NCBI RefSeq assembly: GCF_014646875.1
Contig: NZ_BMOC01000003.1
Span: 62,001-126,000, forward strand
Direction: 5' to 3'
Length of the DNA: 64,000 nt
Source: Halobellus salinus
GTDB lineage: Archaea; Halobacteriota; Halobacteria; Halobacteriales; Haloferacaceae
The translations under genes and the position numbers were made by a program. This document shows, piece by piece, positions 37,769 to 57,319 of the stretch; the first letter of the stretch is position 1; each line of letters opens with the position of its first letter. Below the pieces are notes generated by a model. The model was given only the letters and a program-made list of their open reading frames with translations. It made no database searches and was not told the DNA's origin.

Positions 37769-39409
37769 ATGCAGGAGAACGTACCTGAGTCGTACCTCCC
37801 CGAGGACGGCCCACAGCTCATCCACCCGCTGCCGGAACTCCACTATCCCGAGGAGGTCAACGTCGCAACCCAGCTCGTCGACAGACACGTCGGCGAGGGG
37901 CGCGGCGACAACGTCGCGATCCGGTTCGGTGACGAGGCAGTCACCTACGCCGACCTCCAGACGCGGGTGAACCGGCTGGGGAACGCCCTGGTGAAGCAGG
38001 GTGTAGAGCCGGGCGACCGCGTGGTCGTTCGGTTCACCAACCGCCCGGAGGCGGTCGTGTCGTGTCTGGCCGCCCAGAAGATCGGTGCGGTGGCGCTGCC
38101 GTCGATGAAGCTCCTGCGGGCGAAGGAACTCGTCCACATCATCAACAACGCCGAGGCGTCAACCGTCATCGTCTACGACGACCTCCTTGATGAGATCGAC
38201 GAGGCTCTGCCCGAACTCAACACCGTCGACACCGTCGTGGCCGTCCAGCGCAACGGGATCGACCACGACCACGTGGACTACGACGAGGTGACCGCGGCGG
38301 CCGCCGACGAACTCGACGCCCACCCCACGACCCGCGACGACCTGGCGCTCATGCTCTACACCTCCGGAACGACCGGCCAGCCCAAGGGCGCGACCCACAC
38401 CCACCGCCAGGTGCTCGCGACCGCCGACAGCTACGCGAACTACTGTCTGAACGCCTCCGCCGAGGACGTCTTCGGCGGCAACCCGCCGCTGCCCTTCGCG
38501 TACGGCTACGGCGATCTGCTCACCTTCCCGCTCCGGGTCGGCGCCACCACCAGCCTGGTCGAGAACGCCGGGCCGGGTGATTTGCTCGACGCGATCGAGA
38601 ACCACGGGATCACGGTCCTGTGCTCGATTCCGACGGCGTTCAACCAGATCCTCGCGAAGTTTCCCGACGGCCACGAGGAGTACGACACCGCCTCGCTCCG
38701 GCTGGCGGTGAGCGCGGGCGAGCCGCTGACCCACAGCACGTTCAACCGGTTCAAAGACACGTACGGGGTGGAGATCTACGACGGCATCGGCACCACGGAG
38801 ATGCTCCACATCTTCGTGAGCCACCGCGAGGGCCAGGAGATCGACCCCGGCGCGACCGGCTACCCGGTCCCCGGCTACGAGTGCAAGGTGGTCGACCCCG
38901 ACACCGGCGAGGAGATGCCGCGCGGGGAGGCCGGCCTGCTCGCGGTCCGCGGCCCGACCGGGATCTCCTACTGGAACCGGCCGCGCAAGCAGGACGAGGC
39001 GCTGGTCGACGGGTGGAGCCTCCCGGGCGACATCTACATCCACCGCGAGGACGACCGGCTTGAGTACAAGTCCCGCGAGGACGACCTCATCATCTCCAGT
39101 GGGTACAACATCCCCGGCCCCGAGGTCGAGGCGGTCATCGAGGAGCGCGAGGAGGTCTCGGAGGTCGCGGTCGTCGGTTCCCCCGACGAGGAGCGCGGCC
39201 AGATCGTGAAGGCGTTCGTCGTGTCAACCGAGGGGGTCGGGGCTGGCGACCGCCTCACCGAGACGATCCAGAATCACGTCAAGAACACGCTGGCGCCGTA
39301 CAAATACCCCCGCGCCGTGGAGTTCGTCGACGAACTTCCCCGTACCGAGACCGGGAAGATCCAGCGCGTGAAGCTCCGGGATCGCGAACACGAACAGTAC
39401 GAGGACTAG
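37769..39409 (+). CDS. Aryl-CoA ligase, benzoate/2-aminobenzoate-CoA ligase class
   Basis: 546-residue adenylate-forming enzyme. LMLYTSGTTGQPKGATHTHR is the AMP-binding P-loop (about residue 195), PPLPFAYGYGDLLTFPLR and IYDGIGTTEMLHIF are typical of the aminobenzoate/benzoate ligase group. The C-terminal domain has YKSREDDLIISSGYNI and ends with ETGKIQR (catalytic Lys). It would activate an aromatic acid to its CoA thioester at the start of the pathway. A TTCATAATAAATA box is about 25 nt upstream. Phenylacetate as substrate (PaaK role) is possible but not shown by the sequence. Confidence 0.88.
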   Translation: MQENVPESYLPEDGPQLIHPLPELHYPEEVNVATQLVDRHVGEGRGDNVAIRFGDEAVTYADLQTRVNRLGNALVKQGVEPGDRVVVRFTNRPEAVVSCLAAQKIGAVALPSMKLLRAKELVHIINNAEASTVIVYDDLLDEIDEALPELNTVDTVVAVQRNGIDHDHVDYDEVTAAAADELDAHPTTRDDLALMLYTSGTTGQPKGATHTHRQVLATADSYANYCLNASAEDVFGGNPPLPFAYGYGDLLTFPLRVGATTSLVENAGPGDLLDAIENHGITVLCSIPTAFNQILAKFPDGHEEYDTASLRLAVSAGEPLTHSTFNRFKDTYGVEIYDGIGTTEMLHIFVSHREGQEIDPGATGYPVPGYECKVVDPDTGEEMPRGEAGLLAVRGPTGISYWNRPRKQDEALVDGWSLPGDIYIHREDDRLEYKSREDDLIISSGYNIPGPEVEAVIEEREEVSEVAVVGSPDEERGQIVKAFVVSTEGVGAGDRLTETIQNHVKNTLAPYKYPRAVEFVDELPRTETGKIQRVKLRDREHEQYED

Positions 39410-44812: not shown

Positions 44813-45649
44813 CTACTCGTCGGAGCCGGGCTCCTTGTCGCCGAGTTCGACCCCGAGGAAGTCGGGCTCGCGCTTGTTGAGGAAGGCGTCGACCCCCTCT
44901 TCGGCGATGTCGGAGCCGAGCAGCTGGTTCTGGAGTTCCCGCTCGTGAGCCAGTGCGTCCGAAAGCGGGAGCTCAAGCCCCTCGTTGACCGCGAGCTTGT
45001 TGTGGCCGACCGCGCCCGCGGGCTTGTCGACGATCATCTCCGCGAACTCGAAGACGGCGTCCTCCAGCTCCTCTGGCGGGTGGAGCTCGTCGAAGATGCC
45101 CTTCTCGGTGGCTTCTGCGGGGGTCAGTTCCTCACCGGTGACCATCAGACGGAGCGCCTCCGAGCGGTCGATGTAGCGGGGCAGCAGCTGGGTACCCGCC
45201 TCGCCCGCGATCAGGCCGAGGTGGATCTCGGGCATCCCCACGCGATAGTCGTCGTCGTCACCGACGAACCGGAAGTCACACGCCAGCGCCAGTTCGAGGC
45301 CGCCGCCCATGCAGTGGCCGTCGACGGCGGCAATAAACAGCGTGTCCGTCGTCCGCATCTTCATGATGATCTCCTTCGAGGTCTGGCTGGCGTAGCCGGT
45401 CTGCTCGCCGGTCTCTTCTTGAAGGGCGTTGATGTCGTAGCCGGTCGAGAAGATGTCGTCGTTCGCGCTGCCGAAGACACAGACCCGGACTTCGTCGTCG
45501 AAGCGGACGCCCTCAACGGCGCGCTGGAGCTCCAGTAGGACATCGATGTTGTGGGCGTTCACCGGCGGGCGATCGATCCGCAGGATCCCGACGTGGTCCC
45601 GCGTCTCCGTCTGGAAGTACTCGAGGTCGAGTTCGTCGAAGGACTTCAT
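44813..45649 (-). CDS. Enoyl-CoA hydratase/isomerase family protein
   Basis: 278 residues of crotonase fold. PPVNAHNIDVLLEL and DIFSTGYDINAL are followed by MGGGLELALACDF, and MPEIHLGLIAGEAGTQLLPR keeps the first catalytic Glu but has GEAGTQ in place of GxGGTQ. It ends in an acidic tail. It is one of three crotonases in the island; each has a different active-site loop, suggesting different steps. An AACTATTTGTA box is about 30 nt upstream. Confidence 0.87.
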   Translation of the reverse strand: MKSFDELDLEYFQTETRDHVGILRIDRPPVNAHNIDVLLELQRAVEGVRFDDEVRVCVFGSANDDIFSTGYDINALQEETGEQTGYASQTSKEIIMKMRTTDTLFIAAVDGHCMGGGLELALACDFRFVGDDDDYRVGMPEIHLGLIAGEAGTQLLPRYIDRSEALRLMVTGEELTPAEATEKGIFDELHPPEELEDAVFEFAEMIVDKPAGAVGHNKLAVNEGLELPLSDALAHERELQNQLLGSDIAEEGVDAFLNKREPDFLGVELGDKEPGSDE

Positions 45650-47881: not shown

Positions 47882-48166
47882 CTACGGGCTCTCGTTCGAC
47901 CGAAGCTTCAGGTCCGACCGGGGCTTCGCGACACACGTCAGAACGTACCCTTCGTCTTTTTCGCCCCCCGAGAGGAACATCGCCTCCACCTGGTCGGTCT
48001 CGCCCTCCTCGACGCGGAGCGCCGAGCAGACCCCGCAGACGCCCATCCGGCACTGGTAGGGAAGGTCGACCCCGACTTCCTCGGCGGCCTCCAGGATGGG
48101 CCGGTCTTCGGGGACCGTGATTGTGCGTCCCTTGTCGACGAACTCGACTTCGTAGGTCTCGACCAT
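47882..48166 (-). CDS. Plant-type [2Fe-2S] ferredoxin
   Basis: 94 residues with PYQCRMGVCGVCSALRVEEG and a final Cys about 30 residues later (YVLTCVAKP), the CX4CX2C...C pattern of plant-type ferredoxins. No reductase domain is attached. ATG is 2 nt after the GNAT gene stop, so the two share a transcript. In bacterial phenylacetyl-CoA epoxidases this module is the C-terminal part of the PaaE reductase; here it may be the separate electron donor to PaaABC, which starts 0.7 kb away on the other strand. Confidence 0.9.
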   Translation of the reverse strand: MVETYEVEFVDKGRTITVPEDRPILEAAEEVGVDLPYQCRMGVCGVCSALRVEEGETDQVEAMFLSGGEKDEGYVLTCVAKPRSDLKLRSNESP

Positions 48167-48167
48167 G

Positions 48168-48653
48168 TTAGAGTCGCTGTTCGTAGACGTGTTCAACCGG
48201 TTCGAGTCCGTGGGATTCGAGCATCGCCGCGGCGTCTTCCTCGCCGGCCAGGACGTCGATGCGGTAGAACTCGACGTCGCGGGGATCCTCGGTGAACCAC
48301 TCCGCGGCGCCGTTCAGTAGGTGACTCGCGATCCCCTTCCGACGGTGGTCCTCGCGCACGTACATCCCGTTGATGTAGCCGTGGTTCGCCAGCCGGAAGA
48401 TGGGGTGGTCACCCATCACCCGGGCTTCGAGCACCCCGAGGAACTCGTCGTCGTCGTCGTTTTCCGCCAGGAGGACGGTCCCGTACTTCGAGTCGACGAG
48501 TTGGTTCTCGAAGTACTGAAGCCAGCGCTCGTCGGCCTGGTCCGAGTGTTCGTACCGCTCGTCGAACCGCGAGAGGTACGACGTGAACCCGTGCCAGAGC
48601 GCTAAGATTTCCTCGCCGTCGGCTTCGGTGGCGTGGCGCGTTCGGATACCCAT
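48168..48653 (-). CDS. GNAT family N-acetyltransferase
   Basis: 161 residues. The acetyl-CoA-binding motif is MYVREDHRRKGIASHLLNGA (R-x-x-G-x-A), and the C-terminal domain has EFYRIDVLAGEEDAAAMLES. Start ATG 48653 is preferred to an upstream ATG because a TTTTAGA box is about 25-30 nt away. The substrate is unknown. Divergently placed from paaA and upstream of the ferredoxin gene. Confidence 0.85.
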   Translation of the reverse strand: MGIRTRHATEADGEEILALWHGFTSYLSRFDERYEHSDQADERWLQYFENQLVDSKYGTVLLAENDDDDEFLGVLEARVMGDHPIFRLANHGYINGMYVREDHRRKGIASHLLNGAAEWFTEDPRDVEFYRIDVLAGEEDAAAMLESHGLEPVEHVYEQRL

Positions 48654-48842
48654 ACACACCGTACCGAACCGGTGCGTCTAAAAGATTCGCGTTGGGAGGG
48701 GGTCGGATCCGCGCCTGTGGCCGTCCGCCGCTGTGGCCCGTGCGCCGGTCTGTGGCGACAGTTACCGTGACTACGGTTCGCACGCCTGCCACAACGGTTA
48801 AGACGGTAGAGTCGAACCACGCAGTACGGAGATTGATTCGCG

Positions 48843-49763
48843 ATGCCAACAGAGAAACGCTTCAAAGAGCAGCTACAGAACGGGCGCATGATCGAAGACG
48901 AGTCGGAGATGACCGATGGGTATAAGAAGGCGTTGAAGGGAACCCTGCTTGTCTCCGCCGACACCGAACTCATGAGCGCCCCGGCGTACTACGAGCAGTC
49001 GATGAACGCGCCGACGCTGGACTCGCGGGCGTCGTGTGTGAGCGTGATCCAAGACGAGCTCGGCCACGGCCACATCGCCTACCGCCTGCTCGAGGACCTC
49101 GGCGAGGATCGCGAGCAGCTCCTGTACGAGCGCGAGCCCCACGAGTTCCGAAACACCTACGGCTTCGACCAACCGCTGGAGACGTTCGCGGAGCTGGTCT
49201 GTTCGCACGGGATGTTCGACCGCGCGGGGATGGTCCTCCTGAGCGACATCGAGGAGCACACCTCCTACGCCCCCTGGAAGCGCGCGCTCCGGAAGGTCGG
49301 CAAGGAAGAGCAGTTCCACCTCCGCCACGGCGAGACCTGGATGCGCCGGTTGACCAGCAAGTCCGAGAAGACCAAGGGCAAGGTCCAGGACGCCGTCGAC
49401 TGGATGTTTCCGATGGGTGTCGAGTGGTTCGGCCTTCCCGACAGCCAGAAGCGCAACACCGACCAGCTCGACTACCGCATCAAGGGCAAGACAAACGACG
49501 AGCTCCGCCAGGAGTGGATGAGCCACGTCGTGCCGCTGGCGGACGACCTCGACCTCGAGGTGCCCGCCCACTACGACGAGCAGTCCGACGAGTTCGTCTT
49601 GGAGTACGACGCCCCGGTCGCGTTCGACGCCGGGAGCAAGGACTGGCGCTTCGAGGAGCCGATCGGCTGGGACGGCGTGATCGACCGCTGGCGGGACCGT
49701 GGCCCGGCCAACCGGACGCACGTCGACCTCATCCAGTCCGGGACGCTCGAAGTGGGGGTGTGA
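48843..49763 (+). CDS. paaA: Phenylacetyl-CoA epoxidase, catalytic subunit PaaA
   Basis: 306-residue helical diiron protein of the ferritin-like class. Two E-x2-H boxes bind iron: QDELGHGHIAYRLLED (about residue 70) and GKEEQFHLRHGETWMRR (about residue 157). It carries the ring-epoxidising site of the PaaABC complex, which converts phenylacetyl-CoA to its 1,2-epoxide with O2. It is the first of five overlapping or nearly abutting genes. Substrate specificity, phenylacetyl-CoA or another aryl-CoA, is not settled by sequence. Confidence 0.92.
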   Translation: MPTEKRFKEQLQNGRMIEDESEMTDGYKKALKGTLLVSADTELMSAPAYYEQSMNAPTLDSRASCVSVIQDELGHGHIAYRLLEDLGEDREQLLYEREPHEFRNTYGFDQPLETFAELVCSHGMFDRAGMVLLSDIEEHTSYAPWKRALRKVGKEEQFHLRHGETWMRRLTSKSEKTKGKVQDAVDWMFPMGVEWFGLPDSQKRNTDQLDYRIKGKTNDELRQEWMSHVVPLADDLDLEVPAHYDEQSDEFVLEYDAPVAFDAGSKDWRFEEPIGWDGVIDRWRDRGPANRTHVDLIQSGTLEVGV

Positions 49764-49764
49764 C

Positions 49765-50139
49765 ATGAGCGTCAACACCGCGGGGTCGATCGCCGCGGGC
49801 GCTCACGCCGGCCCCAGCGAGGACGCCGACGAGTTCGAGCGCGAGTTGTGGGCCACCCTCGACACCGTCCCGGATCCACACATCCCGGTCAGTCTGGTCG
49901 AGATGGCGATGGTCTACGATATCGACGCCGGCGGCGGCGACGTGACTGTCACGATGACGTTCCCGTGTATGGGGTGTCCCGCGTACGATATGATCAAAGA
50001 CGACGTGCGCGCGGCGCTCCGGACGGTCCGCGGGGTCACCGACGTCAACATCGAGATCACCTGGGACCCGGTCTGGTCGAAGGACATGCTCACCAACAAC
50101 GCCCGGGAGGAGCTCCGGGACGCCGGTATCAGCCTATGA
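49765..50139 (+). CDS. paaD: PaaD N-terminal (MIP18/DUF59) domain protein, lacking the zinc ribbon
   Basis: 124 residues. LDTVPDPHIPVSLVEMAMVY and a TMTFPCMGCPAYDMIKDDV loop are the MIP18/DUF59 fold found in PaaD, thought to help assemble or repair the diiron/Fe-S centre. Bacterial PaaD continues into a C-terminal Zn ribbon; this one stops after EELRDAGISL. The missing ribbon is encoded separately at 51103. The ATG is 1 nt after the paaA stop, and its stop overlaps paaB by 4 nt. Confidence 0.88.
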   Translation: MSVNTAGSIAAGAHAGPSEDADEFERELWATLDTVPDPHIPVSLVEMAMVYDIDAGGGDVTVTMTFPCMGCPAYDMIKDDVRAALRTVRGVTDVNIEITWDPVWSKDMLTNNAREELRDAGISL

Positions 50140-50339
50140 AGTACCACGTGTTCACCCGCGTCAGCGCTGGCGACGACCTGATGCACGTCGGAACGGTCCA
50201 GGCCGACTCCGACCGGCTCGCGCGGATCTACGCCCACCGGACCTACGACGAGGAGGATTGGGACTTCATCGGCGTCGTCCACGAGGAGAACCTCATCGAA
50301 GTCGAGGGACAGCCCATCGCGGGCGGGAGGACCGCATGA
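50136..50339 (+). CDS. paaB: Phenylacetyl-CoA epoxidase subunit PaaB (short)
   Basis: 67 residues, against about 95 in Escherichia coli. YHVFTRVSAGDDLMHVGTVQ, IYAHRTYDEEDWDFIGVV and a final segment are the PaaB core. It bridges PaaA and PaaC in the known complex. ATGA overlaps on both sides show tight coupling. Confidence 0.87.
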   Translation: MKYHVFTRVSAGDDLMHVGTVQADSDRLARIYAHRTYDEEDWDFIGVVHEENLIEVEGQPIAGGRTA

Positions 50340-51106
50340 GCGACGACGGGTGGCCGGAGCCGGCGGTCGACTACGTTCAGGCCATCGCCGACACCAAGAT
50401 CCTGCTCGGCCAGCGCTACGGCGAGTGGATGTTGAAGGGGCCAAACCTCGAAGACGACATCTCAGGGGCCAGCAACGCCCAAGACGAGATCGGACAGGTC
50501 CGACAGCTGTTCCGAGTCCTCACCCGCCAGGGCGTCGACGACGAGTGGCTCGAATCCGAGCGCGCTCCCGACGAGTACGCCAACGCGGCGACGCTCGACA
50601 CCGAGGCGGACGCGTGGCCCACGTTCATCGTCCAGGTTGCGCTCACCGACCGGGCTGCGTGGCTGCTGCTCGACGCCATCGACCACGACGACTTCACCGG
50701 GATGGTCCAGAAGATGGGCGAAGACGAGTACTTCCACCTCGAACACCACGACGGCCGGCTGGAGACCCTCGCTGAGGACCAGCCCGAGGCCGTTGAGGCC
50801 GCCCTTGAGGACTACTTCCCGGATATTCTTGCGTTCGTCGGCCCCGCGACCCACGACGCGGAGTCGGACCCGCTCGTCGACGCCGGGTTCACCGACCGTC
50901 CGGCCGCGGAGATCAGGCGCGCGCTCGCCGAGCACTACGCGGACCTCTTTGCGGGGACCGAGGTGTCGGTGCCGCCGCTCGATGACGGCGTACCGGACCC
51001 CGACGCGTGGGACGAGACCCGCCGCCGCGTCGGCGACGGCCACGTCGACGCCGACGTGGTCGACCAACTACAGGGTGTCTCCAACCGGGAGTATGTGATC
51101 GCATGA
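50336..51106 (+). CDS. paaC: Phenylacetyl-CoA epoxidase structural subunit PaaC
   Basis: 256-residue helical paralogue of PaaA. NAQDEIGQVRQLFRVL keeps only part of the iron-binding box (Gln for His), as expected for the non-catalytic PaaC, while MGEDEYFHLEHHDGR retains E-x2-H. It stabilises PaaA in the complex. The start overlaps the paaB stop and the stop overlaps the zinc-ribbon gene start. Confidence 0.9.
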   Translation: MSDDGWPEPAVDYVQAIADTKILLGQRYGEWMLKGPNLEDDISGASNAQDEIGQVRQLFRVLTRQGVDDEWLESERAPDEYANAATLDTEADAWPTFIVQVALTDRAAWLLLDAIDHDDFTGMVQKMGEDEYFHLEHHDGRLETLAEDQPEAVEAALEDYFPDILAFVGPATHDAESDPLVDAGFTDRPAAEIRRALAEHYADLFAGTEVSVPPLDDGVPDPDAWDETRRRVGDGHVDADVVDQLQGVSNREYVIA

Positions 51107-51345
51107 GCTCCTCGAACAGTTCACCCGGATGCGACGCCGGTACCGCTGTCGACGACGACCGCCAGGACCCCCCGGAAGCTGTCTGTCCGTTCTGTGGCTC
51201 CGAGGACTCCGATCTCGAGTCCACGTTCGGGTCGGAGGTCTCGAAGAGCCAGTACTACTGCAACAACTGCCACACGGTCTTCGAGCGGATCAAATACGAC
51301 GGCGCGATGCCGTCAACCGGCCGCGAGCGCGACGGTTCACGCTGA
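51103..51345 (+). CDS. Stand-alone PaaD-type zinc ribbon protein
   Basis: 80 residues. CPFCGSEDSDLESTFGSEV and YYCNNCHTVFERIKY give CX2C...CX2C and closely match the C-terminal ribbon of bacterial PaaD. A short disordered N-terminus replaces the MIP18 part. With the gene at 49765 it forms a split PaaD placed around paaB-paaC. ATG overlaps the paaC stop by 4 nt. Confidence 0.85.
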   Translation: MSSSNSSPGCDAGTAVDDDRQDPPEAVCPFCGSEDSDLESTFGSEVSKSQYYCNNCHTVFERIKYDGAMPSTGRERDGSR

Positions 51346-51477: not shown

Positions 51478-52632
51478 CTACAGCCCCAACGCCTCGCCCG
51501 CGACGGTCGTCTTCTGGATCTCCGAGGTCCCGCCGATGATCGAGAGGATGCGGGCGTCGCGGTAGTACCGCTCCAGGGGGTAGTCGGTCCGGTAGCCCTT
51601 GCCGCCGTAGATCTGCATCGCGTTGCGGGCGCAGAACTCCGCGGCGTCGCTGGCGGTGAACTTCGCCCGCGAGGACGCCCGAGTGTCGCCCTCACCGTCG
51701 GCGATCCGGACCGCAGAGCCGTACACCAGACTCCGCGCGGACTCGAGGCGTGAGTCCATCTCCGCCACCAACACCTGGACCGCTTGGTACTCGCCGACGG
51801 GCTTGCCGCCCTGCTCGCGGTCGCCGGCGTAGTCGACCGCTTGCTGGAAGGCGGCCCGGCCGATCCCACACCCGATCGCGCCCAGTCCCGTCCGGGCCAT
51901 GTCGATCGTGCCCATCGCGATCCGGAAGCCCTGGCCGATCGACCCCAGGAGCGCGTCGGCGTCGACCGCGACATCGTCGAGCGTCGAGTCGCCGGTCACG
52001 TGGCCGTGCATCCCGAGGTACTCCCCGCGGTCGAAGGTGAACCCCTCGACGTCGTCGGGGTTCGGCACCAGGAAGACGCTCACGCCGTGGGAGTCGTCGG
52101 GTTGGGGGCGCTTCCGGGCGACCACCAGGTGGACGTCGGCGACGCCGGCGTTCGTCCCGAACGATTTCTCGCCCGAGAGCCGGTAGCCGTCGTCGGTCGC
52201 CTCCGCGACGGTGCCGAGCTCCGTCGGCGACGACCCCGCGCCGGGTTCGGTCAAAAGCATCGCGCCGACCGACTCGCCGGAGACCATCTTCGGGAGCAGG
52301 CGGTCCTTCTGGGCGTCGGTCCCGAAGTTCAGGACCGGCAGCGTCGCGAACGTGTGGCCCTGGATGGTCTCGGCGACCGCGGCGCTCTCGGCGGCGACGC
52401 GTTCGAGCGCCAGACAGTACGAGACGAAATCGCCGCCGAGTCCGCCGTACGCCTCGGGGACTACGATCCCGAGCAGTCCGGCGTCGCCCGCGGCCTCGAC
52501 GACGTCGCGGGGGAACTCCCGGCTCCGTTCGATCTCCTCGGTTCGGGGCGCGAGCGTCTCCTCGACGAAGGAATCGGTGCGGTCGAGAACGTCGTAGTGC
52601 TCCTCGGAGAGGGCACGGTCGAGTAACGTCAT
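51478..52632 (-). CDS. Acyl-CoA dehydrogenase with altered catalytic base positions
   Basis: 384-residue flavoenzyme of the ACAD fold. LLTEPGAGSSPTELGTVAE and KSFGTNAGVADVHLVVA are FAD/substrate segments, and MQIYGGKGYRTDYPLERYYR is the C-terminal domain. The usual catalytic Glu (EGTxxIQ) is replaced by IGGTSEIQ, and the alternative Glu of the isovaleryl type (LDLER) is replaced by IDMAR. Either another residue acts as base or the enzyme has a different reaction. It is 49 nt after the MBL gene. Confidence 0.85.
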   Translation of the reverse strand: MTLLDRALSEEHYDVLDRTDSFVEETLAPRTEEIERSREFPRDVVEAAGDAGLLGIVVPEAYGGLGGDFVSYCLALERVAAESAAVAETIQGHTFATLPVLNFGTDAQKDRLLPKMVSGESVGAMLLTEPGAGSSPTELGTVAEATDDGYRLSGEKSFGTNAGVADVHLVVARKRPQPDDSHGVSVFLVPNPDDVEGFTFDRGEYLGMHGHVTGDSTLDDVAVDADALLGSIGQGFRIAMGTIDMARTGLGAIGCGIGRAAFQQAVDYAGDREQGGKPVGEYQAVQVLVAEMDSRLESARSLVYGSAVRIADGEGDTRASSRAKFTASDAAEFCARNAMQIYGGKGYRTDYPLERYYRDARILSIIGGTSEIQKTTVAGEALGL

Positions 52633-52681: not shown

Positions 52682-53713
52682 CTACAGCGGTCCGAATCGG
52701 AGGCCGTCCCCGCCGGAGTCGATGTCGAGGGTCCGCCGCGCCCGAACGTACCGGTCGGGCGCCTCACCGACGCGCTCGGCGAAGCCGTGGTCGGCCGCGA
52801 AGGCGAGGTGTGCCGCTGCCTCCCCGGCGCCCATCTTGGCGTGGATCCCTGCCATCTCCCCAAACAGGTCGTTTGCGACCGCCCACGGCGTCGGTCCCGG
52901 TTCACCGTCGTCGGTATTGTCCCCGGGGTCGGGCAGCGCCGCGACCGCGTCGAGGGTCCGGTCGGCGTGGTGGTCCCGGATCGTCCGGATCCGATCCGGC
53001 AGGTCGACCGTCGGCCCGTGGCCGGGGTAGGCGTCCGGGGGTGCTGCCGCCTCCGACCCGGTGTCCCCGCCGAATCGCTCCACCAGCTCGTCGAGCGTGT
53101 CGAGGTACGTCGACAGCGCCGCGTCGAGCCGCGTGTCGCTGCCGCCGACGTTCGGCGTGTACGTCGGCAGGACCGCGTCGCCGACGAGCAGCGCGTCGTC
53201 CGCCAGAAGCGCGAGGTGACCCGCGGTGTGGCCAGGGGTGTGGACGGCCTCCGCGCCCGCCACCGACTCGCCGTCGGTGACGGCGCTGACCGGACAGGCG
53301 TCCGGCATCGGCGAGGGAGTGTCGCCGTCGACGATGTCTGCGACCGTCGCGTCGGGAACGCCCCACGCCCGGAGCCGTCGGGCGTCGCGGTCGAGGCGGC
53401 GCTCCCGCTCGGCGGCGTAGTCGGCCACAAGCGGGGCATCGTTCTCGTGGAGTACCAGTTCGGCGTCGGCGGCCGCCGCCAGCCTGGGCGCCACCCCGGC
53501 GTGGTCGGCGTGCCAGTGGGTGACCGCGACCGTCCCTATGGCGTCGACCGGCAGCCCCGCCGCAGCGAGTCCGTTTGTCAGCGTCTCCCACGGCGCCTCC
53601 CCCGGTGGCCCGGGGTCGACGACGAGCCCGCGGTCCGGGAGGACATAGGTGCTGTTTTCTCCCTCGGGGCTGGCAGCGGTGTGGGCGATCCGTTGGACTG
53701 TTGTGCTCGACAT
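52682..53713 (-). CDS. Metallo-beta-lactamase-fold hydrolase
   Basis: 343 residues. VTHWHADHAGVAP is the HxHxDH metal motif (about residue 65), with HTPGHTAGHLAL, VGDAVLP and YPGHGP providing the other ligands. The LACTB2/glyoxalase-II-like pattern with a C-terminal helical domain is visible. In this operon it may hydrolyse a CoA thioester or lactone. It starts 3 nt after the stop of the UbiD-like gene. Confidence 0.86.
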   Translation of the reverse strand: MSSTTVQRIAHTAASPEGENSTYVLPDRGLVVDPGPPGEAPWETLTNGLAAAGLPVDAIGTVAVTHWHADHAGVAPRLAAAADAELVLHENDAPLVADYAAERERRLDRDARRLRAWGVPDATVADIVDGDTPSPMPDACPVSAVTDGESVAGAEAVHTPGHTAGHLALLADDALLVGDAVLPTYTPNVGGSDTRLDAALSTYLDTLDELVERFGGDTGSEAAAPPDAYPGHGPTVDLPDRIRTIRDHHADRTLDAVAALPDPGDNTDDGEPGPTPWAVANDLFGEMAGIHAKMGAGEAAAHLAFAADHGFAERVGEAPDRYVRARRTLDIDSGGDGLRFGPL

Positions 53714-53716
53714 CGC

Positions 53717-55234
53717 TCAGGCACTCCCGTCGGCGCCTCTGTCGTGTGTCGGGTCGTCTCCGGGGCCGTGGTCGAACCCCAACTCCGACCAGTCCGCGCG
53801 CACTGCCTCCCGGATCTCCTCGGGATACGTCGCCTCGAAGGTGACTCGCGGCGCGATGTACTCCTCGTCCCACCGGGGATCCCACGCGGCGTCGACGTAC
53901 ATGTTCGAGCCGGTCGCGCCGTCCCGCCGGTAGTGAGGCGCCCGGGCCGCGGGCGCCTCCGGATCGGAGAACTCCCAGTCGTTGGCGGGGTGGGCTTTCA
54001 CCCAGACGTCGTCGAACGCCCGACCCAGATCCATCGGCGGCGTCTCGGTGTCGAGGATGACCACCTTGTCGAACAGTCGCGAGAACGAGAAGAGGGTGTT
54101 TGCGAGCTGCCACTCGAAGCCGGCGTAGAGAACGTCGCTCGCCACCAGACAGATTCCCAGGCCCGCCTCGACGGGGAGCGCGAGCCACTCCGCGGGCGCG
54201 ACGCCCCAGTAGTTGTTCACCCGACCGTAGAGCCGCGCCGACTCGGTGGTCGACAGGAGGTGTCGGCCGTCGGCCATCGGCGCGCCGGTCGGCGCGAACG
54301 GGACGACCGGGTCCTCGCGGACCCGGACGCGGTTCACGCGGGCACGGAGCGTGGCGGTGGCGACGGCGCGCTCCCACGGCGACGGCGGCCCCGACGGCCG
54401 GCGGTCGGGCGTCGAAACCGACGCGGGCGCGCCGGAGACCGTCGCTTCGATCACCACCTCGCTCGCCGCAGGCACCGCCCCCGCAGGAGTCGGGGCGATG
54501 TCGACCGGCCCCAAGGCATCGGCGATACTGGGCGCGCCCGCAACCTGGGACTCCCCCAGCCACCGCATTGTCGCCCCGAACAGCGCCGCTGGCGGTGTCC
54601 CGAGTGCGATCGTCACCCGGGTTCCCTCGGGCGTGCTGCCCGCCGGTGCGGGAACCGAGAGCCGGAGGCCGTCGCTGCCGTGGACGGAGCCGCGGACCGG
54701 GACCCACCGCACTGCGCCGGGGTCCGTCCGGCTGTCCTCGGGGACCGCTGCGGGCAACGACCCGCTCGCGGCGGCGGCGCCGTCCCCGACTGCGGCCGCC
54801 GGGACCGCCGCGACGCCGAGGGTGAGCGTCGGTACGTCGGCGTCGCCGACCGCCGGCAGCCCCAGCGTGCGGAGGTCAGCGTCGGTCGTCGCCACCGGGT
54901 GGTCGACCGGCTCCGGGTCGGAGCCGCCGCGCCGGGCCGCCACTAACGCGTCGAGCACATCGAGGTACGCGGCGTCGTGGCCCACCCCGAGCGCGCTACC
55001 GGTCCGCGACCACGGCTCCCGCGATCGGACCGAGAGCCGGTCCGGGCCGCCGAACGCCCCGCCGACCAGGGTGGCGCGCCCGCCGGTGTCGGCCAGACGG
55101 ACCGCGGGGGCGTTCGTCCGGGCGGCTTCCCCCGCGACTGCGGCTGCGGTGTCGGCCCAGTGGACCCGCTCGTTGACGGTCGCGAGGTCACTCGCGGCGT
55201 CGAGTCGGTCGAGGTGAGTCCGGAGGTCACTCAC
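53717..55234 (-). CDS. UbiD-family protein, degenerate (decarboxylase-like)
   Basis: 505 residues. The fold pattern of UbiD is recognisable (VPVRGSVHGSDGLRLSV, RVNRVRVREDPVVPFAPTG, a C-terminal DVWVKAHPANDWEF region). The catalytic EGPFGE segment is absent, replaced by a PSGPPSPW stretch, so no prFMN-type E-R-E site is seen. It starts with GTG and overlaps the next UbiD gene by 8 nt. It may form a pair with that protein, with one subunit inactive. Confidence 0.72.
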   Translation of the reverse strand: MSDLRTHLDRLDAASDLATVNERVHWADTAAAVAGEAARTNAPAVRLADTGGRATLVGGAFGGPDRLSVRSREPWSRTGSALGVGHDAAYLDVLDALVAARRGGSDPEPVDHPVATTDADLRTLGLPAVGDADVPTLTLGVAAVPAAAVGDGAAAASGSLPAAVPEDSRTDPGAVRWVPVRGSVHGSDGLRLSVPAPAGSTPEGTRVTIALGTPPAALFGATMRWLGESQVAGAPSIADALGPVDIAPTPAGAVPAASEVVIEATVSGAPASVSTPDRRPSGPPSPWERAVATATLRARVNRVRVREDPVVPFAPTGAPMADGRHLLSTTESARLYGRVNNYWGVAPAEWLALPVEAGLGICLVASDVLYAGFEWQLANTLFSFSRLFDKVVILDTETPPMDLGRAFDDVWVKAHPANDWEFSDPEAPAARAPHYRRDGATGSNMYVDAAWDPRWDEEYIAPRVTFEATYPEEIREAVRADWSELGFDHGPGDDPTHDRGADGSA

Positions 55235-56777
55235 CTGAGGTCACCCCCGGATCGCGGTCGACCCCGGCGCGGTCGAGCACCGACCGCGCGCGTTCCCGCA
55301 GCGCACCGTCTCCGCCTGCCGACTCCGACACGCCCGACTCACCGTTCGAGGTGGCGTCGATGTACGCCTTCGCGGTCTTGGATTTGGAGGTCCCCGTCTC
55401 AACGTCGCCCTTCTCTTCGGGGGTCTGATAGATGTTCAACGGCACCTTCGGCATCGTCTCGGCGCCGAACTGGTGGAAGTCAGAATCGGGGTCGGCGTGG
55501 AGCGCGAGCGCCTCAACAACGTCCCGCGTCGATAGCGGATCAACGTCGGCATCAACGAACACGAAGAAATCAACGTGTAGCATCCCCCACGTTGTGAAGA
55601 TGAAGTTCGCGAGTTCGTGGAGGTAGCCCGGCCGCGGGACGTCCGTCGAAACAACGTACACCGACCGCGGGGTGAACCGCCACGGAACGCACTTTTCGAC
55701 GTCATATCCGGCCGCTCGGAGCCCCAGTGTGGCGTCCGGCCCGGTGCACGCCACCTCGGTCGTGGAAGTGGTGTTCAGCGAGTAGCCGACGCCCGAACCT
55801 TCCACGCAGAATGGGATCAGCGGGTCCTCACGGTGGGTGACCGCGTCGACGCGGAGCACCGGCATCGACCGCCGCGGGCCGTGCATGTACCCGAAGTAGT
55901 CGCCGAACGGTCCCTCGTCCAGCCGCTCGCCCGGGATGATTCGGCCCTCAATCACCAGTTCAGCGCTCGCGGGGACTTTGAGGTCGTTCGTGGTGCACTC
56001 GACGAGTTCGACGGGGTCGCCCTTCAGCCCACCCGCGAACGCCGCCTCGTCGCTACCGGTGGGGATCCACATCGACGCGGTGAACTGCGCGGCTGGCTCG
56101 ACCCCCACGGCCAACGCGACGGGCATCGGCTCCTCGCGCCGCTCGTACCGGTAATAAAACAGGTTCGGGGTCTGCTCACCCGCCAGCAGCAGGACGCTCG
56201 CGCGGGCGCCGTCCTGGATCATGGCGCGGTGGGCCGACCAGTCGGTCCACGAGGAGTCGGGGTCGGGCGCCACCATCGTGTGGAGGTTGGAGTAGCGCCC
56301 GCCGTCGGCGGCGTGGATGTAGGGCCAAGGGAACGAAAAGAGGTCCACGTCGGCGCCGCGGCGGATCACCGCCTTGCAGGCGGCGTCGGTGGCGTCGACT
56401 TCGACCGGGGCGACCGGGTTCCGGAGCCGCTCCATCACCGTCCGGTAGTACTCCTCGCCCGAGAGGTCCGGGGGGAGTCCGAGCGCTCGCGCCGGGCGAT
56501 CCCACGGCCGACCCCGGGTGCCGCGGTATGGGTCACCCACCAGCCGCGCGGGGACCTGGCAGTCGGTGACCGACTCGAAGACGGGGACGCGGTCGTCGCG
56601 GTCGTTCGCAAGCATCGTGATCGCGCTTGCCTCGAGATTCCAGGAGACTCTGGCGCCGATCCGGTTGAGTTCCTCTGCGGCGTCTATCATCCCGAGGTAG
56701 TCTCGGAAGCTGTCAGCCGGGACGTTGGGGGCGCCGCCATCGGTCACGGGACCACCACCCCGTCGCTTACGGGTCAC
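55227..56777 (-). CDS. UbiD-family (de)carboxylase
   Basis: 516 residues. YSNLHTMVAPDPDSSWTDWS and the DEGPFGDYFGYMHGP loop (about residue 289) correspond to the prFMN-binding and catalytic segments. The first Glu is kept but the second Glu of E-G-P-F-G-E is Asp. VTHREDPLIPFCVEG follows as in the family. Relatives decarboxylate or carboxylate aromatic acids or phenols using prenylated FMN; no UbiX (prenyl transferase) gene is in the window. GTG start overlaps the upstream gene stop (GTGA). Confidence 0.83.
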   Translation of the reverse strand: MTRKRRGGGPVTDGGAPNVPADSFRDYLGMIDAAEELNRIGARVSWNLEASAITMLANDRDDRVPVFESVTDCQVPARLVGDPYRGTRGRPWDRPARALGLPPDLSGEEYYRTVMERLRNPVAPVEVDATDAACKAVIRRGADVDLFSFPWPYIHAADGGRYSNLHTMVAPDPDSSWTDWSAHRAMIQDGARASVLLLAGEQTPNLFYYRYERREEPMPVALAVGVEPAAQFTASMWIPTGSDEAAFAGGLKGDPVELVECTTNDLKVPASAELVIEGRIIPGERLDEGPFGDYFGYMHGPRRSMPVLRVDAVTHREDPLIPFCVEGSGVGYSLNTTSTTEVACTGPDATLGLRAAGYDVEKCVPWRFTPRSVYVVSTDVPRPGYLHELANFIFTTWGMLHVDFFVFVDADVDPLSTRDVVEALALHADPDSDFHQFGAETMPKVPLNIYQTPEEKGDVETGTSKSKTAKAYIDATSNGESGVSESAGGDGALRERARSVLDRAGVDRDPGVTSGE

Positions 56778-57319
56778 TCCTCGCGACCCCCGCCGAGCCG
56801 GATCTCCGCCTCCTCGCGTTCGCGCTCGGTCCGGAGTTCGACGTACCGGTCAACCAGCCCGGGCCGGGTCTCCGAGAGGTGCTCCCCCAACAGCGACCGG
56901 ATCGCAGTCGAGACCGAGTCGTACTCGCCGGTCTCGACCAGGTATGAGACCAGTGTCTTCACGTCCGCACCGCGGGCGGTCAGCACGTTCGACCCCTCGC
57001 GGCTCCGCTCGAAACAGGCCGCCAGCGTCGCCTCGTCGACGGTGGGCTCGGAGATGTCGGCCTCGATGATCTCGATGTACCACCGCTCCTCGCGGTTTTC
57101 GTGCGGCCCACGGAGGATGGTCAGCGGATCGGGATCGTCGAGTTCGGCGGCCTCGCGCGCGATCCGCGCTCGGGTGGTGAAGATGTGTTTGGTCTCCTGG
57201 TCGGTCACCTGGAGTGAGATCTCGCCGGCGGTGTCGGCGGGCAGGTGGTCCTCGGAGGTGATATACTGGTCGCTCACGGACCCATCCCCTCGTGACCGGC
57301 CAGCGTGTTCATACGCCAC
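56774..57319 (-). CDS. Unassigned protein with ribbon-helix-helix-like C-terminus
   Basis: 181 residues. I do not recognise the N-terminal ~120 residues. The segment VETGEYDSVSTAIRSLLGEH (about residues 130-150) looks like the helix-turn-helix part of a ribbon-helix-helix (CopG-like) domain. A charged helix rich in Arg/Glu ends the protein. A TTTTATACT box about 22 nt upstream supports GTG at 57319; another GTG at 57277 would begin VSDQYITSED. First gene of the ubiD-ubiD-MBL-ACAD set, so it could be its regulator. Confidence 0.55.
   Translation of the reverse strand: MAYEHAGRSRGDGSVSDQYITSEDHLPADTAGEISLQVTDQETKHIFTTRARIAREAAELDDPDPLTILRGPHENREERWYIEIIEADISEPTVDEATLAACFERSREGSNVLTARGADVKTLVSYLVETGEYDSVSTAIRSLLGEHLSETRPGLVDRYVELRTEREREEAEIRLGGGREE

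What the first reader, a model, noticed from the sequence alone, without database searches (positions are those of the whole stretch)
48843..51345. Archaeal PaaABC-type epoxidase operon with PaaD split in two and no PaaE
Five overlapping or abutting genes encode PaaA, a MIP18-only PaaD, a short PaaB, PaaC and a stand-alone zinc ribbon. In the bacterial gene, MIP18 and ribbon are one protein and the PaaE reductase completes the set. Here the two halves surround paaB-paaC and no FNR-type reductase is in the window; only a lone [2Fe-2S] ferredoxin sits 0.7 kb away. A multi-component oxygenase with a different electron-supply route is suggested.
Basis: partly seen in the sequence, partly recalled or inferred. 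Interest (0 to 1): 0.75.

Follow-up and report, generated by a model that had tools for sequence, protein, structure and literature searches.

The report
PaaABC-like oxygenase operon with own ferredoxin
A salt-loving archaeon carries a five-gene oxygen-using enzyme operon that belongs to a widespread but apparently undescribed sister family of the bacterial phenylacetyl-CoA epoxidase; in haloarchaea it always travels with its own small ferredoxin instead of the usual fused reductase, and it probably attacks CoA-activated benzoate-like ring compounds.

Summary
The five genes are real and placed as described: PaaA-like, MIP18-only PaaD, short PaaB, PaaC-like and a stand-alone PaaD zinc ribbon, tightly coupled. 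No PaaE, fused PaaD, PaaK or BoxB was found in the 99%-complete genome. The reading changes in three ways. (1) A separate ribbon is ordinary in haloarchaea: NCBIfam already models MIP18-only PaaD and a 56-aa ribbon (misnamed PaaE), and canonical haloarchaeal operons run A-B-C-D-ribbon. (2) The window proteins fall far below those models. They belong to a distinct sister family with order A-D-B-C-ribbon, found in haloarchaea and about ten bacterial phyla; the ribbon is a separate gene in 106 of 106 loci, so a fused PaaD looks derived, not this one split. (3) All 84 family PaaA sequences keep the six diiron ligands and none keeps the E49/K68 lysine bridge proposed for electron entry from PaaE. 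In Halobacteria the operon, one specific [2Fe-2S] ferredoxin and one GNAT acetyltransferase occur in exactly the same 43 of 391 genomes, side by side. A benzoate-CoA-ligase-family gene is usually nearby. Best reading: a ferredoxin-fed diiron aryl-CoA oxygenase acting on a benzoyl-CoA-type substrate. Substrate and electron route are inferred, not shown.

The parts
48843..49763 (+). PaaA-like catalytic diiron subunit (306 aa)
   Evidence: PF05138 6.5e-62; six ligands E42,E72,H75,D126,E155,H159 kept, E49/K68 lysine bridge lost; model pLDDT 95, Z 32.5 to PaaA 4IIT
49765..50139 (+). PaaD N-terminal half: MIP18/DUF59 protein (124 aa), probable metal or Fe-S maturation factor
   Evidence: PF01883 8.7e-22; NF041868 108 bits of 180
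50136..50339 (+). short PaaB-like bridging subunit (67 aa)
   Evidence: TIGR02157 5e-4; fold matches PaaB 3EGR and 4IIT_B
50336..51106 (+). PaaC-like structural subunit (256 aa), diiron ligands incomplete (K at E42, Q at H75)
   Evidence: PF05138 3e-25; ligand check
51103..51345 (+). stand-alone PaaD-type zinc ribbon (80 aa)
   Evidence: PF23451 3.1e-16; 4 Cys invariant in 120 homologues
47882..48166 (-). cluster-specific plant-type [2Fe-2S] ferredoxin (94 aa from ATG), probable electron donor
   Evidence: TIGR02008 85 bits over 81; same 43 of 391 genomes as the PaaA, within 2.7 kb
48168..48659 (-). GNAT acetyltransferase abutting the ferredoxin gene; role unknown
   Evidence: PF00583 4.9e-13; same 43 genomes
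37769..39409 (+). benzoate-CoA ligase-family enzyme, probable maker of the substrate
   Evidence: TIGR02262 389.8 over 375.25; present in 23 of 28 related loci
44813..45649 (-). crotonase (ECH2); its orthologue directly follows the ribbon gene in most related loci: candidate epoxide isomerase or ring-opening step
   Evidence: PF00378 1.8e-47; 21 of 28 loci
51478..52626 (-). acyl-CoA dehydrogenase, likely associated pathway gene
   Evidence: acyl-CoA dehydrogenase models; 16 of 28 loci

Best explanation
The operon encodes a soluble diiron oxygenase for CoA-activated aromatic acids, from a sister family of 1,2-phenylacetyl-CoA epoxidase with the typical order A-D-B-C-ribbon. A is the catalytic subunit, C its partly degenerate structural partner, B the bridge; D (MIP18) and the ribbon are two separate maturation factors for the metal sites. 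In haloarchaea electrons reach the diiron site from the dedicated [2Fe-2S] ferredoxin at 47882-48166, itself reduced by general cell enzymes (2-oxoacid:ferredoxin oxidoreductase, or the general stand-alone FAD reductase), instead of a fused PaaE. The likeliest substrate is benzoyl-CoA or a substituted benzoyl-CoA made by the nearby ligase; the product (epoxide or arenol) would pass to the crotonase and beta-oxidation genes around it. Shown here: gene content, family, ligand conservation, linkage. Inferred: activity, substrate, electron route, roles of D and ribbon.
For: Fold and ligands: Z 32.5 to PaaA, 21.1 to BoxB; EEHDEH in 84 of 84 family members. Distinct family: tree clade of 31 A rows sister to canonical PaaA, SH-aLRT 95, with the labels needing only the minimum 5 changes; order and separate ribbon across phyla. 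Electron route: ferredoxin, GNAT and PaaA share exactly 43 of 391 genomes, distance 0.1-2.7 kb; the ferredoxin is only 36-45% identical to the genome's other such ferredoxins sampled but 60-97% to its counterparts at the other loci; lysine bridge lost in 84 of 84, and that bridge was proposed to carry electrons from PaaE (PMC4498308). Substrate: ligase TIGR02262 over cut-off; no PaaK, no BoxB; bacterial members L145, L153, L159 carry neighbouring benzoate-CoA ligase-family genes at 542-595 bits.
Against: Canonical haloarchaeal PaaA keeps E49/K68 although its operon also lacks a PaaE reductase, so loss of the bridge is not simply loss of PaaE. Bacterial members show no linked ferredoxin or reductase within about 4.5 kb, so the ferredoxin route may be haloarchaeal only. 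Some bacterial members sit beside ligases that are not benzoate-type (L092, L105, L106, L126, L169), so substrates may vary. Type Ib loci (L065-L067) lack the window's ligase.
Confidence: 0.55

Rival explanations
1. It is a diverged 1,2-phenylacetyl-CoA epoxidase doing the ordinary PAA pathway step, with an unlinked reductase.
For: PF05138 A and C plus PaaB fold; the best named matches are PaaA models; some bacterial relatives have PaaK-like ligases next door (L126, L127, L169); canonical haloarchaeal operons manage without a linked PaaE.
Against: TIGR02156 128.8 of 280 and the haloarchaeal Paa cut-offs missed; no PaaK in the genome; separate clade, different order, no lysine bridge.
Confidence: 0.2
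2. It is a hydroxylase or epoxidase for a non-benzoate CoA ester (aminobenzoyl-, hydroxybenzoyl-, heteroaromatic or alicyclic acyl-CoA), the GNAT acting on an amino-aromatic acid or on a regulator ligand as BadL does in Rhodopseudomonas.
For: The GNAT is inseparable from the operon in haloarchaea; BadL is a GNAT that acetylates aminobenzoates in benzoate catabolism (PMC6191541); 2-aminobenzoate-CoA ligases are close kin of benzoate-CoA ligases (PMC8388817; 4WV3 among the ligase hits); UbiD-family genes neighbour many loci.
Against: No direct evidence on the ligase's substrate; bacterial members lack the GNAT.
Confidence: 0.2
3. The ferredoxin is not the donor to PaaA but feeds another enzyme of the pathway; the oxygenase is reduced by an unlinked NAD(P)H reductase.
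For: A general 212-aa FAD reductase-like protein is in 381 of 391 haloarchaeal genomes; bacterial members have no linked ferredoxin.
Against: The ferredoxin follows the PaaA in 43 of 43 genomes and 28 of 28 loci, whereas ligase, acyl-CoA dehydrogenase and UbiD genes do not, so the oxygenase is the only constant redox partner.
Confidence: 0.2
4. The five-gene arrangement is an assembly or gene-calling artefact.
For: Small ORFs of 67 and 80 aa are easily miscalled.
Against: Same genes and order in about 100 independent loci.
Confidence: 0.01

Closest known systems
Bacterial 1,2-phenylacetyl-CoA epoxidase PaaABC(D)E (TIGR02156-TIGR02160)
   Same: Diiron A with six identical ligands, PaaC-like partner, PaaB fold, MIP18 and ribbon domains, CoA-ester context
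   Different: Order A-D-B-C-ribbon, ribbon separate, no PaaE, no E49/K68 lysine bridge, no PaaK; equivalog cut-offs missed
Canonical haloarchaeal Paa operon (NF041867-NF041869)
   Same: MIP18-only PaaD and stand-alone ribbon; no linked FNR-type reductase
   Different: Order A-B-C-D-ribbon, lysine bridge kept, PaaK present in L175, its PaaC keeps the diiron ligands; window proteins score 15/150, 108/180 and 34/100
BoxAB benzoyl-CoA 2,3-epoxidase
   Same: Diiron aryl-CoA epoxidase; structural match Z 21; benzoate-CoA ligase in the cluster
   Different: BoxB is one ~470-aa chain; the genome has no TIGR03225 match
Family members annotated only as 'Phenylacetic acid catabolic protein' or 'paaA' in Halalkalicoccus jeotgali, Agrobacterium tumefaciens pAtCG920 and Thermus thermophilus pTF27b
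   Same: Same family and order A-D-B-C; ribbon present
   Different: No GNAT-ferredoxin pair in the two bacteria; ribbon gene left unannotated in both bacterial records

Membership tests
1,2-phenylacetyl-CoA epoxidase PaaABCDE | PF05138 pair A and C with six diiron ligands in A | tested here: met
1,2-phenylacetyl-CoA epoxidase PaaABCDE | NCBIfam equivalog cut-offs (TIGR02156/57/58/59) | tested here: not met
   128.8 of 280; 20.1 of 85; 54.6 of 133; 78.1 and 35.3 of 108
1,2-phenylacetyl-CoA epoxidase PaaABCDE | E49-K68 lysine bridge | tested here: not met
   Y and V in the window; 0 of 84 family members
1,2-phenylacetyl-CoA epoxidase PaaABCDE | Fused MIP18-ribbon PaaD | tested here: not met
1,2-phenylacetyl-CoA epoxidase PaaABCDE | PaaE reductase (FNR plus [2Fe-2S]) | tested here: not met
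   no match over cut-off genome-wide; FNR-like and Fer2 parts are separate genes
1,2-phenylacetyl-CoA epoxidase PaaABCDE | PaaK phenylacetate-CoA ligase in the genome | tested here: not met
   best 30.6 bits of 646
1,2-phenylacetyl-CoA epoxidase PaaABCDE | Epoxidation of phenylacetyl-CoA | not testable with these tools
   needs a biochemical assay
Haloarchaeal Paa (NF041867-NF041869) | Curated cut-offs and order A-B-C-D-ribbon | tested here: not met
   15.3/150, 108.3/180, 34.4/100; order A-D-B-C-ribbon
BoxB benzoyl-CoA epoxidase | TIGR03225 match in the genome | tested here: not met
   no match at E 0.01
A-D-B-C-ribbon PaaABC-like family (defined here) | Clade membership, gene order, separate ribbon, lost lysine bridge | tested here: met
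Plant-type [2Fe-2S] ferredoxin (TIGR02008) | Curated cut-off | tested here: met
   85 over 81.15

The most novel reading that the evidence does not exclude
The A-D-B-C-ribbon family is a third class of aryl-CoA epoxidase, besides PaaABCE and BoxAB, spread over archaea and about ten bacterial phyla, with benzoyl-CoA-type substrates and an electron entry that bypasses a PaaE-type reductase; in haloarchaea a dedicated ferredoxin reduces the diiron site directly.
Probability: 0.35. Interest if true: 0.75.

Novelty: new variant of a known kind. Interest (0 to 1): 0.58.

Why it matters
If right, many haloarchaea and soil, thermophilic and uncultured bacteria carry an unrecognised oxygenase for aromatic acids that is now labelled phenylacetate degradation. 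It would change pathway predictions that use PaaA and PaaC as phenylacetate markers (as proposed in PMC13186573), give a natural PaaABC system with a detachable electron donor, and turn the origin of PaaD around: two separate genes first, fusion later.

Tried and rejected
Artefact reading: rejected by about 100 loci. Ferredoxin as a chance neighbour: rejected by the genome profile; the E-value thresholds were set after seeing the data, but the gap is wide (1e-35 to 1e-26). The stand-alone FAD protein as a dedicated reductase: rejected, it is in 381 of 391 genomes. Literature: searches for haloarchaeal PaaABC, PaaD zinc ribbon and related terms found no description of this family; the library holds open-licence papers only.

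Full report
What is there. Five + strand genes at 48843-51345 encode a PaaA-like protein, a MIP18-only PaaD, a 67-aa PaaB, a PaaC-like protein and an 80-aa zinc ribbon. Gaps are 1, -4, -4 and -4 bases, so the genes are probably translated together; similarly tight spacing recurs in 28 haloarchaeal relatives. Pfam supports A, C, D and the ribbon. PaaB is weak by sequence but its predicted structure (pLDDT 89) finds the solved PaaB structures first. The PaaA model (pLDDT 95) matches PaaA of the phenylacetyl-CoA monooxygenase at Z 32.5 (rmsd 2.4, 285 residues) and BoxB at Z 21.1.

The genome. The window lies in a 3.07 Mb genome held at 99.26% completeness. It has one PF05138 pair only, no fused PaaD, no PF00175 domain, no PaaE over cut-off, no PaaK and no BoxB. 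A free-standing 212-aa FAD-binding reductase-like protein lies next to korA on another contig, but 381 of 391 Halobacteria have it, so it is a general protein.

The split is not the unusual part. NCBIfam already holds haloarchaeal models for a MIP18-only PaaD (NF041868) and a 56-aa ribbon called PaaE (NF041869), and public records show Haloferax alexandrinus with paaA-B-C-D plus this ribbon as paaE, and Haloarcula sinaiiensis the same with its B gene under another name. The window proteins hit those models far below their cut-offs.

A separate family. A survey of 391 Halobacteria found 43 genomes with a close PaaA relative and a larger set with only distant ones at about 30-35% identity. Plasmid records revealed bacterial relatives in Thermus thermophilus (54%) and Agrobacterium (38%), and a scan of species genomes gave 80 loci in Pseudomonadota, Actinomycetota, Bacillota, Chloroflexota, Bipolaricaulota, Gemmatimonadota, Acidobacteriota, Armatimonadota, KSB1 and haloarchaea. 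Profile annotation shows the order A-D-B-C-ribbon almost throughout; exceptions are a ribbon in front of A in Siminovitchia (L153, L159), a divergent D in L069-L071, a second PaaB in a few, and loci cut by contig ends. In Agrobacterium and Thermus the ribbon gene is there but unannotated. MIP18 and ribbon are separate genes in 106 of 106 loci of this family and in 10 of 10 canonical haloarchaeal loci; they are fused only in the four canonical bacterial operons sampled. On a tree of A and C proteins the new A rows form one clade (SH-aLRT 95) sister to canonical PaaA, and the new C rows are apart from canonical PaaC. With C as outgroup to A, separate genes are ancestral and fusion is derived. 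This rests on a quick tree and few canonical bacteria.

Active site. All 84 family PaaA sequences examined keep the six diiron ligands. None keeps the pair E49 and K68, which all seven canonical PaaA in the same alignment keep (also L072, L073, L078). In E. coli PaaA this lysine bridge lies at the diiron site and was suggested to take part in electron transfer from PaaE (PMC4498308). The C subunit has Lys in place of the first Glu ligand in nearly all family members, so it is probably not catalytic.

Ferredoxin and GNAT. The [2Fe-2S] ferredoxin and the GNAT beside it are present in 28 of 28 related haloarchaeal loci, whereas ligase (23), crotonase (21), MBL (18), acyl-CoA dehydrogenase (16) and UbiD (16) are not. 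Over 391 genomes, PaaA, ferredoxin and GNAT pick exactly the same 43 genomes, and the ferredoxin lies 0.1-2.7 kb from paaA. In L065-L067 all seven genes lie in one direction, A-D-B-C-ribbon-GNAT-ferredoxin. The genome's other sampled ferredoxins are only 36-45% identical to it. The ferredoxin is therefore the best candidate donor in haloarchaea; bacterial members have no such linked pair.

Substrate. The ligase at 37769-39409 passes the benzoate-CoA ligase family cut-off and its orthologue is upstream of paaA in most related loci. Bacterial members L145, L153 and L159 have strong benzoate-CoA ligase-family genes in the same short stretch (542-595 bits against 375). Others have PaaK-like or unassigned ligases, so the family may cover several acids.

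Most likely working. Ligase makes an aryl-CoA; the A-B-C complex, matured by D and ribbon, oxygenates the ring with O2 and electrons from the cluster ferredoxin; crotonase, aldehyde dehydrogenase and beta-oxidation enzymes carry on. Gene content, family, conservation and linkage are shown; enzyme activity, substrate, electron route and the roles of D, ribbon and GNAT are inferred. The GNAT may act like BadL, which acetylates aminobenzoates to control benzoate catabolism (PMC6191541), but this is only a lead.

Novelty. I found no paper describing this family; a 2026 survey calls archaeal PAA sets incomplete (PMC13186573). The library lacks most subscription journals, so prior description cannot be excluded.

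Noticed in passing
L090 7496-7663; L175 7696-7863: NCBIfam NF041869 names a 56-aa zinc ribbon 'PaaE' in haloarchaea, whereas bacterial PaaE is the FNR-type reductase: a misnomer now spread through public annotation.
   Followed up: partly
L088 12151-12456 (+) and L087 just after PaaC: Ribbon genes of the Agrobacterium and Thermus operons are present but unannotated in the public records.
   Followed up: partly
window 52682-57319: MBL hydrolase, two UbiD-family proteins (the second degenerate) and a 181-aa protein without any family are conserved beside the operon in 10 to 18 of 28 related loci; a heteromeric UbiD-type enzyme is possible.
   Followed up: partly
L074-L079, L090, L175 (second PF05138 gene): Canonical haloarchaeal PaaC keeps all six diiron ligands (8 of 9, the ninth with Asp for the first Glu), unlike bacterial PaaC, so both subunits might be catalytic there.
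   Followed up: no
L135, L145, L152, L155, L087: Some bacterial members carry two tandem PaaB-like genes.
   Followed up: no
L080 10298-10936 (-): A 212-aa FAD-binding reductase-like protein next to korA is almost universal in Halobacteria (381 of 391) and is a candidate general ferredoxin reductase.
   Followed up: partly
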